From positions 1-45,455 of the forward strand of contig JANWUW010000054.1 of assembly GCA_025057935.1 (NCBI GenBank): a DNA stretch of 45,455 nucleotides, in the 5' to 3' direction. Below the pieces are notes generated by a model. It did no database searches. It had not been told where the DNA came from and was given only the letters and a program-made list of their open reading frames with translations. The position numbers were made by a program, and so were the translations under genes. This document shows positions 5,343 to 43,682 of the stretch, one piece after another. Source of the DNA: Thermoflexales bacterium. Its GTDB lineage: Bacteria > Chloroflexota > Anaerolineae > J036 > Brachytrichaceae. Each line of letters starts with the position of its first letter. The first letter of the stretch is position 1.

Positions 5343-6377
5343 ATGGCCAACGAGCTTCCCGATCGGCTGGTCTCCGGTCGTCATCGCCCCGAGGACGACA
5401 GCGTGCTGGATCGCGCGCTGCGCCCGCGCACGCTAGACGAGTTGATCGGTCAAGACCAAATCCGCGACAACTTGCGCTTGATGATCCAAGCCGCGCGCGC
5501 CCGCGGCGAGGCGCTTGATCACGTGCTGTTTTACGGGCCGCCCGGCTTGGGAAAAACCACCCTCTCGCACATCATCGGCAACGAGATGCAGTCCAATGTG
5601 CGCGTGACGAGTGGACCCGCCATCGAGCGCCCTGGCGACTTGGCAGCGATCCTCACCAACCTCCGCGCGCGCGATGTGCTCTTCATTGACGAGATTCACC
5701 GCCTCAACCGCGCCGTCGAAGAGATTCTTTATCCTGCCATGGAAGATTACGCGGTGGACATCGTGATCGGCAAGGGTCCGGCGGCGCGCAGCGTGCGCTT
5801 GAAGCTGCCGCCGATCACTGTAGTGGGCGCGACCACGCGCTTGGCGCTGATCAGCGCCCCCTTGCGCGCGCGCTTCGGCGCGGTGTTCCGCGTGGATTTC
5901 TACCCAGTTGAAGCGCTTGAGCAGATCATTGCGCGAGCGGCGCGCTTGCTGGAGACGCCGATCGATCCAGAGGCGTTGCACCTCATCGCACAGCGTGCGC
6001 GCGGCACGCCACGCGTGGCGCTGCGGTTGTTCAAACGCGCGCGTGACTACGCGCAAGTGAAGGGCGAGGGGCACATCACCGCGACCTTGGCGGATGAGGC
6101 GCTGGCGCTCCTCGGCATTGACGCGCTCGGCTTAGATGATCTCGACCGCCGCGTGTTGCGCGCCATCATCGAGAAGTTCGGAGGCGGTCCAGTGGGGTTA
6201 GAGACGCTCGCTGCCAGCGTGAGCGAAGAAAGCGACACGATCGCCGATGTAGTAGAGCCATACCTGCTACAACTGGGTTTCCTCGAGCGCACAGCTCGTG
6301 GGCGCAGCGCGACGCCGCGTGCGTATGCCCACTTGGGGATTCCCTACGTGCCGCCGGCGCAGCCTAACTTGTTGTGA
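5343..6377 (+). CDS. ruvB: Holliday junction branch migration ATPase RuvB
   Basis: The 344-residue protein is full length for RuvB. It shows Walker A GPPGLGKT (65-72), Walker B DEIH (116-119), the RuvB signature ending in [10 protein letters not shown], a sensor segment TVVGATTR, an arginine-finger region around APLRARFG, and a C-terminal winged helix ending near [13 protein letters not shown]. RuvB hexamers drive branch migration with RuvA. The start MANELPDR was chosen because RuvB similarity begins there and GATAAT lies 10 bases before it; the open frame upstream is unrelated sequence. ruvA and ruvC are not adjacent, and I see no LexA box in front of it, unlike ruvB in many SOS-regulated genomes. 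Confidence 0.97.
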
Positions 6378-38809: not shown

Positions 38810-39931
38810 CTAGATAAACAGCATCATAGCCTGATTGCTTATAAAGCGCGCTTCAGGTCGCAGGCGCACGCGCTCTGGGGTGACCTCGATCAAGCCGAGC
38901 TGTTCGCCGCGCTGCAGCGCCTCTGCGAAGAAGGCGCTGATTGGGGCGCCGTAGCGTTGCGCGAAGCGCGCCTGAGAGACGCCTTCCTCAAGCAGTCGCA
39001 AGCCGAGCATCATGGTCTCGCTGCGCGAGGTCGCGGGTTCGATAGTCTCGCTGCCGGCGATTGTGCTCTCGCCGCGTTGCGCACGCGCGATGTACTCAGC
39101 AGGGCGTCGCACACGCCAGTAGCGCAGTGTCTCTGTCGCGCCGTGCGCGCCTGCGCCAAACCCAAAATAGCTGCCGTTGCGCCAATACACTAAGTTGTGT
39201 TGGCATGCTTTGTCGGGGCGATGCCAATTGGAGATTTCATAGTGTGTGAAGCCAGCAGCATCGAGGTGTTCCTCGGCGAGCGCATACATTGCTGCTGCAA
39301 GGTCGGGGTCGGGCAGCGGCACTTCGCCACGGCGTGTCCAGTCATGCATGGGCGTGCCTGCTTCGATCGTCAGCGCGTAGAGAGAGAGGTGATCGGGTTG
39401 GAGCGCCAATGCAGCGCGCAGTGTGTGTTGCCATTGATCGAGCGTCTGATAAGGCAAGCCGAAGATGAGATCGAGGTTGAGGTTGTCGAATCCTGCTGCG
39501 CGCGCTGCCTCGACGGCGCTCACGACCGCACGCCAATCGTGCTCGCGCCCAAGCAGCCGCAGCTCGTGCAGGTTGGCGCTTTGCGCGCCGAAGCTGAGCC
39601 GATTGACGCCCACGCTGCGCAGCGCGCGCAGGTAAGGCTGCGTGACCGTGCCCGGGTTGCACTCCACAGTGATCTCGGCGTCGCTTGGCAGCGCGAGCGC
39701 GTCGCGGCAGGCAGTGATGAGGCGCTCGAGCTGCGTCGGCGTGAGCAGCGAGGGCGTGCCACCTCCGAAGAACAACGTATGCGCCACGCCCCGATGCGCG
39801 CGAATTTCGCGCTCCAGCGCGCGCACATAGGGCTCGAACAGCGCCTCCTGCCCGATGTAGGTGTTGAAGTCGCAGTAAGTGCAGCGCGCGCGGCAAAACG
39901 GGATGTGCACGTAAATCCCGACCGCGTCCAT
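38810..39931 (-). CDS. hemW: Radical SAM haem chaperone HemW
   Basis: The 373-residue protein starts MDAVGIYVHIPFC and has the radical SAM cluster ligands Cys13, Cys17 and Cys20 (CRARCTYC), GGGTPS at 56-61, the SAM-binding segment ECNPGTV, and HNLVYWRNGSYFGFGAGAHG. The HNLVYW motif and lack of the second SAM-site Cys typical of HemN point to HemW, which binds haem and inserts it into respiratory enzymes. Many genomes label it coproporphyrinogen oxidase by similarity. The start was set at the first ATG before the conserved HIPFC segment; the upstream frame overlaps the divergent glycosyltransferase gene. Confidence 0.93.
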   Translation of the reverse strand: MDAVGIYVHIPFCRARCTYCDFNTYIGQEALFEPYVRALEREIRAHRGVAHTLFFGGGTPSLLTPTQLERLITACRDALALPSDAEITVECNPGTVTQPYLRALRSVGVNRLSFGAQSANLHELRLLGREHDWRAVVSAVEAARAAGFDNLNLDLIFGLPYQTLDQWQHTLRAALALQPDHLSLYALTIEAGTPMHDWTRRGEVPLPDPDLAAAMYALAEEHLDAAGFTHYEISNWHRPDKACQHNLVYWRNGSYFGFGAGAHGATETLRYWRVRRPAEYIARAQRGESTIAGSETIEPATSRSETMMLGLRLLEEGVSQARFAQRYGAPISAFFAEALQRGEQLGLIEVTPERVRLRPEARFISNQAMMLFI

Positions 39932-39975
39932 GACAAGAATGATTTTCGCGCATCGCTGGATGAGGTGCTGCACAG

Positions 39976-39981
39976 TATCAT
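39976..39981 (+). promoter_or_regulatory. -10 element (TATCAT) of the glycosyltransferase gene
   Basis: TATCAT lies 8 bases before the GTG at 39990. It matches the consensus at five of six positions and supports that start codon. Confidence 0.5.
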
Positions 39982-39989
39982 CTGGCGTT

Positions 39990-41162
39990 GTGCGCATCGT
40001 GTTCATCGCGCCTTTCGCCTACGCGCCGAAAGCCACAGTGAGCGCGCGCATGATGCCGATGGCGAAGGCGCTGGCGCGACGTGGGCACACGGTTCACATC
40101 CTCGTCCCGCCCTACGACAACCCCGCGCACAGCGGCGTGATTTGGGAAGAGGATGGCGTGCGCGTGATCAACATGCGGGTTCGCGCTGGCGCTTCGGGGT
40201 TCGCGACGTATGCCTCGTTGGCACGTCAACTCGTGCAGCATGTCCGGCAGCTTAAGCCAGAGGTGCTGCACGTGTTCAAGCCGGTCGGCGTCGGCGCGTT
40301 GGCGATGTTGGCGCTGCCTCCGCCCTTCGTGGACAACGATGATTGGGAAGGGCGCGGCGGCTGGGTCGACGTGAATCCATACTCGCCTGCGCAGCGCTTG
40401 ATGATGATCTGGCAAGAGCGCTGGGCGTTGCGCCGCGCGCGCGCGGTCACGTGTGCCAGCGAGGCGCTGGTTATGCGCACGCAGGTGTTGCGAGGTCGTT
40501 GCGATGCGGTGCTAATGCTGCCCAACGGGCCGGATTTTCAGTTGCGCGCGCAGGTCGCAGAAGCCGAATCTCGACGCGCAGCGCTGCGCCGCGCATTTGG
40601 CTGGGACGGGAACATGCCGATGCTGATCTACGCCGGCACTGTGCCGCGCAACCACGACCTCGATGTTGCTGTGCGCGCGCTCGCTGAGCTTGTTGATCGT
40701 CCATGGCGTTGGGTGATCATCGCAAGTGGTGATGGCGTGTCCGATTTGCAGGCGCAGATCACGCGATTGCATCTCGACGCGCGCGTGGAATGGCACGCGT
40801 TCATGCCGCGTGCGCAGTTGGTAGAGCGGCTTGTAGCTGCCGATATTGCCCTCTACCCGTATCGCGACACGCCCATCAACCGCGCGAAGTGCAGCGGCAA
40901 GGTAGTGGATTACATGGCGTGCGGCAAGCCAATGGTTGTGAGCGATGTGGGCATGAATCGCATTTACCTCGATGGAGGGCGCTGCGGCATGCTCACGCCG
41001 CCGGGCGATGCCCTAGCCTTCCGTGACGCGCTCCGCTACCTGCTAGAGCATCCGCACGAGGCGTTGGCGCTGGGTCGCGCAGCGCAGGCGTATCTGTGGG
41101 CGCATTTCGATTGGTCAGAACGCGTCGGCGCGCTTGAGGCGCTGTATGCGCAACATGCGTGA
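39990..41162 (+). CDS. Glycosyltransferase family 4 protein
   Basis: The 390-residue protein is a two-domain GT-B enzyme. The N-domain starts RIVFIAPFAYAPKATVSARMMPMAKALARRGHTVHILVP, with the acceptor-side Gly/His pattern. The C-domain has the nucleotide-sugar region (LIYAGTVPRNHDLDVAVRAL, ADIALYPYRDTPINRAKCSGKVVDYMACGKPMVVSDVG), close to the GT4 EX7E region although the first Glu is replaced. It should add a hexose to a lipid or glycan at the cytoplasmic membrane face; donor and acceptor are unknown. GTG 39990 is chosen because the fold begins there and TATCAT is 8 bases upstream; a longer frame overlaps hemW. Confidence 0.88.
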   Translation: MRIVFIAPFAYAPKATVSARMMPMAKALARRGHTVHILVPPYDNPAHSGVIWEEDGVRVINMRVRAGASGFATYASLARQLVQHVRQLKPEVLHVFKPVGVGALAMLALPPPFVDNDDWEGRGGWVDVNPYSPAQRLMMIWQERWALRRARAVTCASEALVMRTQVLRGRCDAVLMLPNGPDFQLRAQVAEAESRRAALRRAFGWDGNMPMLIYAGTVPRNHDLDVAVRALAELVDRPWRWVIIASGDGVSDLQAQITRLHLDARVEWHAFMPRAQLVERLVAADIALYPYRDTPINRAKCSGKVVDYMACGKPMVVSDVGMNRIYLDGGRCGMLTPPGDALAFRDALRYLLEHPHEALALGRAAQAYLWAHFDWSERVGALEALYAQHA

Positions 41163-41204: not shown

Positions 41205-41792
41205 ATGACCACCCCGCGCAGGCTGATCGTCGGCATGAGCGGCGCTAGCGGCGCGATCCTCGGCATTCGCCTGCTCGAAGTGCTGCGCGATACCGACATT
41301 GAGACCCATCTTGTGATCTCCAAAGCAGCGCGGCTCACTATCTACAGCGAGACGCATTGGCGTGTCGCCGATGTGGAGCGCCTTGCCTGCGTGGTGCATC
41401 CACACAGTGACCTGGGCGCGACGATTGCGAGCGGATCGTTTAAGACGATGGGCATGGTGATCGCGCCGTGCTCGGTGAAGACGCTCGCAGCGATCGCCTA
41501 CGGCTTCACTGACGATCTCATCGCCCGTGCCGCCGACGTGTGCCTGAAGGAAGGGCGACCTGTGGTTGCGGTGTTTCGCGAAGCGCCTTTGCACGTCGGT
41601 CACTTGCGTGCGCTCACGCAGTTCGCCGAGATGGGCGGCGTGGTGTTTCCGCCAGTGCCCGCGTTTTACGCGCAGCCGCAGACGCTCGACGAGGTTGTGA
41701 CGCAGATCGTCGGGCGCGTGCTCGACCGATTGGGCATCGAAAACAACCTGGTGAAGCGCTGGGAGGGGCTGCGGCTCAGGCGCGAGGTTTGA
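41205..41792 (+). CDS. ubiX: Flavin prenyltransferase UbiX
   Basis: The 195-residue protein has the UbiX flavoprotein motifs GMSGASGAILGIRLLE (10-25), GSFKTMGMVIAPCSVKTLAAIAYG and RPVVAVFREAPLH. It joins a dimethylallyl group to FMN, making the prenylated cofactor for UbiD-type decarboxylases in quinone or aromatic metabolism. No ubiD is in the window. Length and motifs are normal. Confidence 0.95.
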   Translation: MTTPRRLIVGMSGASGAILGIRLLEVLRDTDIETHLVISKAARLTIYSETHWRVADVERLACVVHPHSDLGATIASGSFKTMGMVIAPCSVKTLAAIAYGFTDDLIARAADVCLKEGRPVVAVFREAPLHVGHLRALTQFAEMGGVVFPPVPAFYAQPQTLDEVVTQIVGRVLDRLGIENNLVKRWEGLRLRREV

Positions 41793-41905: not shown

Positions 41906-42811
41906 ATGGACGAGAGGGCAAACGTAGCGCCTCCGCTGCCAAGCATTGCGCGGCTCGCTTCCATCAGCTTGTACCTTGCGCTTCTTGCTGCATGGGTCGC
42001 CACTGCGGGGAGCCTCTACATGAGCGAGGTGCTTGGCTGGATTCCGTGCTTGTGGTGCTGGTACCAGCGCGTGGCTATGTACCCGTTGGCGGTTGTGCTT
42101 GCGGCTGGTCTGATCGCGCGCGACCGCAACACGCCGCGCTACGCGCTGGTGTTGGCTGTGCCGGGCATTTTGGCTTCAACGTATCACATCCTGCTTCAAA
42201 AGGTGCCAGCGCTGGCGCAGTTCGAGTCGTGCCGTGTGGGCGTGCCGTGCTCAGTGGATTACCTCAACTGGCTCGGCTTCATCACAGTGCCAATGCTTGC
42301 GTGGGTGGCGTTTGCGATCGTGATCGCAGGCAGCGTGTTCGCGTTGCGCGCAAATCGTGTGGTGGCTGAGGATTATCTGCGCGAGGGTCCTGTGTTCGGC
42401 TTCTCGCCGGCTTTCTCGGTTGTCATGACTGTAGCGGCGGTGGTGGCGCTTTTTGTGCTCGGCGGCGTGATGACCAGCCAGCGCGCTGCAGCGGCGCAAT
42501 CTCGAGCGACCTTGCCTACGCCTGCAGCAAGCCTCGCTGCCTCCGCCTCACGCGATGAAGCGCTGCACATCTACAACCAGTCCTGCATCGGTTGCCACGG
42601 ACCAGCAAACGCCAGCATGATTTGGGTGCGTCCTGAGTTCTTGCGCTCGCGCAGCGATCTTGAGTTGCTTGCCTTCATGCGTGCTGGACGCGCAGCAAAC
42701 GCGCCTGATAACTTCAGTGGTCAGGCAATGCCGGCAAACGGCGGGCGCGTGGATCTCACGGATGCACAGTTGCTCGCGCTGATCCAGCTTCTGCGCGAAG
42801 TCAAACAGTGA
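41906..42811 (+). CDS. DsbB/BdbC thiol oxidase fused to a cytochrome c domain
   Basis: The 301-residue protein joins two modules. Residues 15-150 are a four-helix DsbB/BdbC domain with the first Cys pair CLWC (Cys48, Cys51, followed by WYQR) and the second pair Cys109/Cys115 (SCRVGVPC). A fifth helix (about 168-190) and an Ala/Ser/Pro linker lead to a class I cytochrome c domain (about 215-301) with CIGCH (Cys227, Cys230, His231) and the probable axial Met275 (GQAMPANGG). Five helices place the cytochrome on the same outer side as both Cys pairs. DsbB reoxidises a thioredoxin-like donor and hands electrons to quinone; the haem may offer another route. The DsbA partner is not nearby. Confidence 0.9.
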   Translation: MDERANVAPPLPSIARLASISLYLALLAAWVATAGSLYMSEVLGWIPCLWCWYQRVAMYPLAVVLAAGLIARDRNTPRYALVLAVPGILASTYHILLQKVPALAQFESCRVGVPCSVDYLNWLGFITVPMLAWVAFAIVIAGSVFALRANRVVAEDYLREGPVFGFSPAFSVVMTVAAVVALFVLGGVMTSQRAAAAQSRATLPTPAASLAASASRDEALHIYNQSCIGCHGPANASMIWVRPEFLRSRSDLELLAFMRAGRAANAPDNFSGQAMPANGGRVDLTDAQLLALIQLLREVKQ

Positions 42812-42824
42812 GCTGAAAGCGCGC

Positions 42825-43682
42825 GTGTACGTTGGCATTGACTTCGGCTTATCAAACCTCGACGCGGTTGCAATGCCGGCGCCGTCAGCTCCGCTTCACG
42901 AGTGGCGCACAGTCACGCTGCGCGGTCGGCACATGCCGAACGAGGCCACAGTGAGAGCTGCGCTCGAGGCGCTGGCAGTAGAGTGGAGCGAAGCGCGCAT
43001 CATCGCCGTAACGGGCGGGCAGCATCGCATGTTGCCTGGAGTCCTGCGCGGAACCGTGCTGTTCAAGGCGAATGAGTTGGAGGCTGCAGGTCGAGGCGGT
43101 TTGCATCTAGCGCGCAGTGCGCGTCCCTCGCTTGAGGCAGCGACAGTAGCAAGTTGTGGATCAGGCACAGCGGTTGTTGCAGTGCGAGGGCGCTCAGTGA
43201 GCCATGTGAGCGGCAGCGCTGTCGGCGGTGGCACGTTATTGGGGCTGTCGCGCCTGCTGATCGGCAGCACCGACCCGCACGAAGTGGATATGCTTGCGCG
43301 GCAGGGCAATCCGAATGCAATTGACCTCTCGCTGCGCGATGCGGTTGGGGGAGCGATTGGGCGCTTGCCTGCCGAAGCAACAGCGGTGAACTTCGGGCGC
43401 GTGCCGTTGCTGGAGCGGTTGGAGCTTGCGCACGCTGACCTTGCAGCAGCGATCGTGACCATGGTCGCGCAAGTAGTGGGCGTCACTGCAGTGAGCGCTG
43501 CGCGTGCCGAATCGTTGTTCCCCATCGTGTTCGTGGGTCACCTGGTGGACATGATCTCCGTGCGGCGTGTGCTTGAGGAAGTAGCGCAACTCTACGACGC
43601 GGGGATGCTGATCCCTGAGCTGCCTGGGTACGCCACTGCGGTGGGCGCGCTGCTGCTAGCGGCGGAGGGCCTGCCGAGGTGA
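42825..43682 (+). CDS. coaW: Type II pantothenate kinase (CoaW/Fumble family)
   Basis: The 285-residue protein has the acetate-kinase/ASKHA fold: [12 protein letters not shown] (4-15), [13 protein letters not shown] (110-118), [18 protein letters not shown] and AVNFGRV, each aligning with the Staphylococcus type II enzyme (NVGTGTS, GGGMIQGLGYLL, AANFGHV). The candidate catalytic Glu is in [11 protein letters not shown] (Glu84). It phosphorylates pantothenate, the first step of coenzyme A synthesis, and this type is not blocked by CoA. The phosphate loop lacks the usual GGT, so activity should be checked. A GTG start follows the DsbB-cytochrome gene by 13 bases; the two are probably cotranscribed. 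Confidence 0.8.

What the first reader, a model, noticed from the sequence alone, without database searches (positions are those of the whole stretch)
41906..42811. DsbB/BdbC disulfide oxidase fused to a c-type cytochrome
One reading frame holds both DsbB Cys pairs (48/51 and 109/115), a fifth membrane helix, and a CIGCH cytochrome domain with a candidate axial Met275. Topology places the haem on the same outer face as the Cys pairs. DsbB normally passes electrons to quinone; a tethered haem could let disulfide formation feed a cytochrome oxidase or soluble carrier directly, or sense haem supply. I know of no standard DsbB with this domain. hemW, a haem chaperone, lies 2 kb away, which may be coincidence.
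Basis: partly seen in the sequence, partly recalled or inferred. Interest (0 to 1): 0.72.

Follow-up and report, generated by a model that had tools for sequence, protein, structure and literature searches.

The report
Disulfide-forming enzyme fused to cytochrome c
A group of Chloroflexota bacteria carries the membrane enzyme that makes protein disulfide bonds joined to a haem-carrying cytochrome c, which suggests that electrons taken from folding proteins may be handed straight to a cytochrome chain, much as mitochondria do with Erv1 and cytochrome c.

Summary
One ORF (41906-42811, 301 aa) encodes a BdbC/DsbB-type thiol oxidase, a fifth membrane helix and an outward-facing class I cytochrome c. 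It is no assembly artefact: 23 of the 27 family genomes with a DsbB, and at least 32 of 35 in a second Anaerolineae family, carry the same full-length fusion. The four DsbB cysteines, the quinone-site residues R55 and H94 (E. coli R48, H91), CxxCH and Met275 are conserved throughout.

Two further facts support a working electron link. In the second family the fusion usually follows a DsbA/BdbD gene (11 of 16 loci). In a third family DsbB is paired with cytochromes c of two other subfamilies: fused once, and adjacent as separate genes in four genomes (order DsbA-cytochrome c-DsbB in one).

Best reading: DsbA > DsbB cysteines > bound quinone > tethered haem > cytochrome oxidase. Electron transfer to the haem is inferred, not shown. 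The hemW neighbour is coincidental. I found no report of this architecture in the papers library, which lacks most subscription journals. Verdict: a new variant of a known kind, of real interest.

The parts
41906..42811 (+). DsbB/BdbC-cytochrome c fusion gene (301 aa plus stop)
   Evidence: ORF; Pfam and NCBIfam; same full-length protein in relatives
41969..42271 (+). DsbB domain match, residues 22-122; the four-helix core runs to about residue 152
   Evidence: PF02600, 41.2 bits; model helices 13-42, 49-70, 76-99, 128-152
42047..42058 (+). first Cys pair C48-L-W-C51 at the start of helix 2
   Evidence: invariant in 23 and 32 aligned fusions
42068..42070 (+). R55 (CXXC+4), equivalent of E. coli DsbB R48 at the quinone site
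   Evidence: HMM alignment to PDB 2hi7/6wvf; invariant; role of R48 from PMC11208910 and PMC3839904
42185..42187 (+). H94, equivalent of E. coli DsbB H91
   Evidence: alignment; invariant in fusions
42230..42250 (+). second Cys pair C109-x5-C115 in the outer loop
   Evidence: conserved in all fusions
42407..42481 (+). fifth membrane helix (about residues 168-192)
   Evidence: hydropathy peak; model helix 168-200
42482..42541 (+). variable Ala/Pro/Ser/Thr-rich linker
   Evidence: pLDDT under 50 at 204-211; helix-plus-linker region has the highest dN in 7 of 8 pairs
42542..42808 (+). class I cytochrome c domain
   Evidence: Cytochrome_CBB3/Cytochrom_C; model resembles cytochromes c-554, c6 and the c domain of cd1 nitrite reductase
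42584..42598 (+). haem-binding motif CIGCH (C227, C230, H231)
   Evidence: CxxCH invariant in all type-A fusions
42728..42730 (+). M275, candidate sixth haem ligand (MP motif)
   Evidence: M275-P276 invariant
41205..41792 (+). ubiX (flavin prenyltransferase), upstream neighbour kept in genera g1, g5, g6 only; context, not part of the system
42825..43682 (+). type II pantothenate kinase-like gene, downstream neighbour kept in g1, g5 and, at a distance, g6; context only
38810..40006 (-). hemW/hemN-like radical SAM gene; neighbour not conserved; not part of the system

Best explanation
It is a disulfide-bond-generating membrane enzyme with a built-in cytochrome c. A DsbA/BdbD-like partner oxidises secreted proteins and is reoxidised by C109/C115. 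Electrons pass to C48/C51 and on to a quinone held at R55/H94, as in ordinary DsbB. Instead of, or besides, leaving with the quinol to the pool, they are taken one at a time by the tethered haem c on the same outer face and passed to a terminal oxidase (the genome has a caa3-type oxidase) or a soluble carrier. Shown: the fusion, its conservation, the retained catalytic residues of both halves, the predicted outward placement, DsbA partners, and the presence of cytochrome maturation, bc-type and oxidase genes. Inferred: haem attachment, the electron step from DsbB to haem, and the final acceptor.
For: Full-length conservation in two families and one member of a third, with all redox residues conserved and purifying selection on both domains. 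R55 and H94 align with quinone-site R48 and H91 of E. coli DsbB (roles in PMC11208910). The model's first 155 residues match E. coli DsbB with ubiquinone best (6wvf, Z 10.5, 141 aligned, rmsd 3.6) and its last 90 match class I cytochromes c. A DsbA/BdbD-like gene lies directly upstream of the fusion in 11 of 16 loci of family f117. Pairings of DsbB with other cytochromes c in family f37: fused to a different subfamily in G666; order DsbA-cytochrome c-DsbB in G495; DsbB followed directly by a lipoprotein cytochrome c in G413, G513 and G200. The own genome has one DsbB, three DsbA-like domains, CcmF/CcmH, Rieske/cytochrome b/dihaem c, and a caa3-type oxidase subunit II. All 28 family genomes have COX1 and Thioredoxin_4 matches.
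Against: No experiment shows haem attachment or electron transfer. Retained quinone residues mean ordinary discharge to the pool may be enough. One genus of the family (g2) has DsbB without the domain yet also has COX1, so the domain is dispensable for DsbB function in related cells. In the window's own lineage no DsbA gene is adjacent. The linker is variable and the models give no haem-to-cysteine distance.
Confidence: 0.62

Rival explanations
1. Ordinary quinone-dependent DsbB that happens to anchor a respiratory cytochrome c: the fusion gives the cytochrome a membrane tether and co-expression, but the haem shuttles electrons from the bc-type complex to the oxidase and takes none from thiols.
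For: Quinone-site residues are intact. Cytochromes c of the same type exist as separate proteins in the class. Standalone DsbBs in other Chloroflexota families already have a fifth helix to which a domain could be joined.
Against: DsbB is paired with cytochromes c of three different subfamilies, both fused and as adjacent separate genes, once between dsbA and dsbB; a simple anchor would not favour the same partner repeatedly.
Confidence: 0.22
2. A dedicated assembly factor: the pair adjusts the thiol state of cytochrome c or oxidase CuA apoproteins, and the haem domain senses or docks the target machinery.
For: The f37 fusion of G666 is followed by SCO1/SenC, with another cytochrome c nearby. 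Loss of BdbC or BdbD suppresses cytochrome c defects of ccdA and resA mutants in B. subtilis (PMC9145763).
Against: SCO1 is seen next to only one fusion; other loci lie beside ubiX, an acyltransferase gene or a general DsbA gene. The genome has a single DsbB, so it probably serves general disulfide formation.
Confidence: 0.08
3. Haem or redox sensor: the cytochrome domain gates DsbB according to haem supply or respiratory state without net electron transfer.
Against: hemW adjacency is not conserved; the domain keeps a complete CxxCH/Met set as in electron-transfer cytochromes c.
Confidence: 0.05
4. Assembly or frameshift artefact joining two neighbouring genes.
For: Separate adjacent genes do exist in f37.
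Against: The same in-frame fusion occurs in more than 55 genomes, including single-contig ones.
Confidence: 0.01

Closest known systems
BdbC of Bacillus subtilis and DsbB of E. coli (PF02600)
   Same: Four-helix core, CXXC at the start of helix 2, second Cys pair in the outer loop, quinone-site Arg and His, partnership with a DsbA/BdbD protein (gene order in f117 as in the Bacilli fetched)
   Different: Extra fifth helix and a covalently joined cytochrome c domain; Q54 in place of E47
Mia40-Erv1/ALR-cytochrome c relay of mitochondria
   Same: Proposed logic: a disulfide generator passes electrons one at a time to cytochrome c and the oxidase; Erv1 has cytochrome c reductase activity (PMC7155059)
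   Different: Unrelated protein; Erv1 uses FAD and a separate cytochrome c, here a quinone site and a tethered cytochrome. Works like it at most; not a member
Membrane-anchored single-haem class I cytochromes c (CccA/c550 type), and caa3 oxidase subunit II with a fused cytochrome c
   Same: One helix plus an outer CxxCH domain; fusion as a way to wire a donor to an acceptor
   Different: The helix follows a DsbB core rather than a signal anchor or a CuA domain
VKOR (PF07884) quinone-dependent thiol oxidase, in bacteria often fused to a thioredoxin domain (from memory)
   Same: Fusion of a quinone-dependent disulfide generator with a redox partner domain
   Different: In VKOR the CXXC is at helix 4 (PMC11208910), here at helix 2; VKOR's fused partner is a thioredoxin, not a cytochrome

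Membership tests
DsbB/BdbC (PF02600, PRK03113) | Profile match over the curated cut-off | tested here: met
   PF02600 41.2 vs 22.1 bits; PRK03113 128.1 vs 124 bits
DsbB/BdbC (PF02600, PRK03113) | CXXC at the start of helix 2 and a second Cys pair in the outer loop between helices 3 and 4 | tested here: met
   C48/C51, C109/C115; model helices
DsbB/BdbC (PF02600, PRK03113) | Quinone-site Arg (CXXC+4) | tested here: met
   R55 aligned to E. coli R48, invariant
DsbB/BdbC (PF02600, PRK03113) | Fold of the four-helix bundle | tested here: met
   best match 6wvf, Z 10.5, rmsd 3.6, 141 aligned, 20% identity; helical bundles give middling Z by chance, so this is supportive only
DsbB/BdbC (PF02600, PRK03113) | Reoxidises a DsbA partner using quinone | not testable with these tools
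   DsbA-like genes adjacent in f117; needs biochemistry
Class I cytochrome c | CxxCH with a downstream axial Met in a small helical domain | tested here: met
   CIGCH and M275 invariant; model resembles c-554 and c6
Class I cytochrome c | Pfam curated cut-off | tested here: inconclusive
   window protein 24.1 vs 27 and 16.0 vs 21.3 bits; homologues pass both
Class I cytochrome c | Covalently bound haem | not testable with these tools
   maturation genes CcmF and CcmH present
VKOR | PF07884 match and CXXC at helix 4 | tested here: not met
   no VKOR hit at E 0.1; CXXC at helix 2
Erv1/ALR sulfhydryl oxidase | FAD-binding Erv1/Alr domain | tested here: not met
   no such Pfam hit at E 0.1

The most novel reading that the evidence does not exclude
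A bacterial thiol:cytochrome c oxidoreductase: a single protein that makes disulfides and sends the electrons to the cytochrome c branch, bypassing the quinone pool and the bc-type complex, so a bacterial counterpart in logic of Mia40-Erv1-cytochrome c, with a bound quinone as internal relay.
Probability: 0.45. Interest if true: 0.78.

Novelty: new variant of a known kind. Interest (0 to 1): 0.62.

Why it matters
To my knowledge all characterised DsbB and VKOR enzymes hand their electrons to quinone. If this one uses a tethered cytochrome, bacterial oxidative folding would have a second exit into respiration, one that mitochondria reached with unrelated proteins. The haem also gives a built-in coloured reporter for a step that is otherwise hard to watch, so thiol-to-quinone-to-haem transfer in a DsbB could be followed directly.

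Tried and rejected
Artefact or frameshift: rejected, as the same fusion is in more than 55 genomes. hemW link: not conserved. Function from ubiX or panK neighbours: kept only in three genera, while other genera have an acyltransferase and a PDZ/radical-SAM-like gene downstream (named by eye), so the neighbourhood in f1 says little. Correlation with cytochrome oxidase: uninformative, as all 28 family genomes have COX1, including the genus without the fusion. Number of origins: the DsbB-domain tree needs at least 8 changes of fusion state and splits f1 from f117, while the cytochrome-domain tree does not reject one clade for type-A fusions (p-AU 0.28); gains and losses stay open. Foldseek alone gave no significant hit; VIA-align gave the DsbB and cytochrome matches. 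Other phyla: no type-A fusion among 1043 sampled genomes of the phyla of a Thermoactinomyces, an Actinomycetes and a Kiloniellaceae genome, but fusions to other cytochrome subfamilies would appear there only as DsbB hits, and only four such ORFs were read for CxxCH (none). Literature: no description found in the held library; most subscription papers are not held. I did not name family f117: a guess that G667 is Caldilinea aerophila was dropped, as its length does not match the one I recall.

Full report
What is there. The window is a whole contig (C47) of a 2.27-Mb genome estimated 97% complete; its closest named relatives are metagenome-assembled Chloroflexota (Anaerolineae, Thermoflexales, Candidatus Roseilinea). 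One ORF at 41906-42811 (+) encodes 301 residues. Pfam and NCBIfam place residues 21-148 in the DsbB/BdbC family and 219-299 in class I cytochrome c, the latter slightly under Pfam's cut-off in this protein but over it in homologues. It is the only DsbB found in the genome.

It is real and kept. Of 28 family (f1) genomes, window's included, 27 have a DsbB and 23 of these carry the full-length fusion, down to 34% identity to the window protein, all with CxxCH. The other four, all of genus g2, have a DsbB of about 150 residues without the domain; the genome without any DsbB match (G011) is only 67% complete. In a class-wide sample a second family (f117) has the fusion in 34 of the 35 genomes with a DsbB match, 32 of them without a stop inside the match, plus one genome of f33. 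Single-contig genomes are among them. Both domains show dN/dS well under 1; the helix-plus-linker region changes fastest in 7 of 8 pairs. C48, C51, Q54, R55, H94, C115, C227, C230, H231 and M275 are invariant, and so is C109 once one misplaced gap is allowed for.

What the parts say. An alignment that spans other phyla, compared with PDB sequences, puts C48/C51 on C41/C44, R55 on R48 and H94 on H91 of E. coli DsbB. R48 and H91 act at the quinone site (PMC11208910, PMC3839904). So the quinone reaction is probably kept. AlphaFold2 models (mean pLDDT 78 and 84) give a DsbB-like bundle (best PDB match 6wvf, E. coli DsbB with ubiquinone, Z 10.5, rmsd 3.6, 141 residues, 20% identity), a fifth helix and a domain like cytochromes c-554 and c6. 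The models contain no haem and I could not read distances from them. An odd number of helices after an inside N-terminus places the cytochrome outside with the cysteines, where c-type haem is attached; this is inference from topology.

Company it keeps. In f117 a DsbA/BdbD-like gene (CPAC or CPHC) lies directly upstream of the fusion in 11 of 16 loci, the same order as in the Bacilli fetched. In f37 three further arrangements occur. G666 fuses DsbB to a cytochrome c of another subfamily and is followed by SCO1. G495 has DsbA, a lipoprotein cytochrome c of that same subfamily, then DsbB. G413, G513 and G200 have DsbB followed at once by a lipoprotein cytochrome c of a third kind. The cytochromes of type-A fusions and of the f37 neighbours together separate from the unfused ones at 94/98 support, and one origin for the type-A cytochrome is not rejected, whereas the DsbB tree splits the fused families. 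Whatever the number of type-A origins, the f37 cases use different cytochromes. That the same two functions are joined in several ways is the best evidence here that electrons pass between them; it is still circumstantial.

The rest of the chain. The own genome encodes CcmF and CcmH, a Rieske/cytochrome b/dihaem cytochrome c set, a caa3-type oxidase subunit II with cytochrome c, two COX1 proteins, and three DsbA-like domains, one joined to a cyclophilin. So holocytochrome, partner and acceptor are all plausible in this cell.

Mechanism. Most likely: DsbA dithiol, C109/C115, C48/C51, bound quinone, haem c, oxidase. The first three steps follow from the DsbB family; the haem step is inferred. 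I give 0.62 to this, 0.22 to a DsbB that only anchors a respiratory cytochrome, 0.08 to an assembly role and 0.05 to sensing.

Known or new. It belongs to DsbB/BdbC by every sequence test run and carries an added domain. It works, if the reading is right, like Erv1-cytochrome c, without being related to it. No in-frame type-A fusion was seen among the 393 genomes outside family f1 in a phylum-wide sample (that sample gave no match labelled f117) or in 1043 genomes drawn from three other phyla. I found no description in the papers library, with the limits stated. I call it a new variant of a known kind.

Noticed in passing
L186:4856-5740 and 5744-6328 (genome G666): DsbB fused to a different cytochrome c subfamily (CTACH), followed by SCO1/SenC, with a separate lipoprotein cytochrome c and another Cys-rich lipoprotein upstream.
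   Followed up: partly
L207:1882-3734 (genome G495): Gene order DsbA-like, lipoprotein cytochrome c (CSTCH), DsbB; the cytochrome groups with the fused domain of G666.
   Followed up: partly
L185:5391-6266, L187:5305-6165, L214:1347-2265: DsbB directly followed by a lipoprotein cytochrome c gene; in L185 and L187 only the stop codon separates the two in one frame.
   Followed up: partly
L200:2524-4332 (window genome, contig C80): A 603-residue lipoprotein-like ORF joins a cyclophilin-type peptidyl-prolyl isomerase to a DsbA-like thioredoxin domain; ORFs of similar size with a Thioredoxin_4 match recur across the family.
   Followed up: no
L194:920-1585 (genome G689): A DsbB of family f117 that lacks the cytochrome domain but is sister to a fused one; the tail looks like a deletion remnant, so either a recent loss or an assembly error.
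   Followed up: no
L189, L190, L191, L195 (families f86 and f50) and L188, L193 (f35): Standalone DsbBs with a fifth hydrophobic segment after the core but no cytochrome.
   Followed up: no
window 42825-43682: A bacterial type II pantothenate kinase-like (Fumble) gene directly downstream, below the equivalog cut-off.
   Followed up: no
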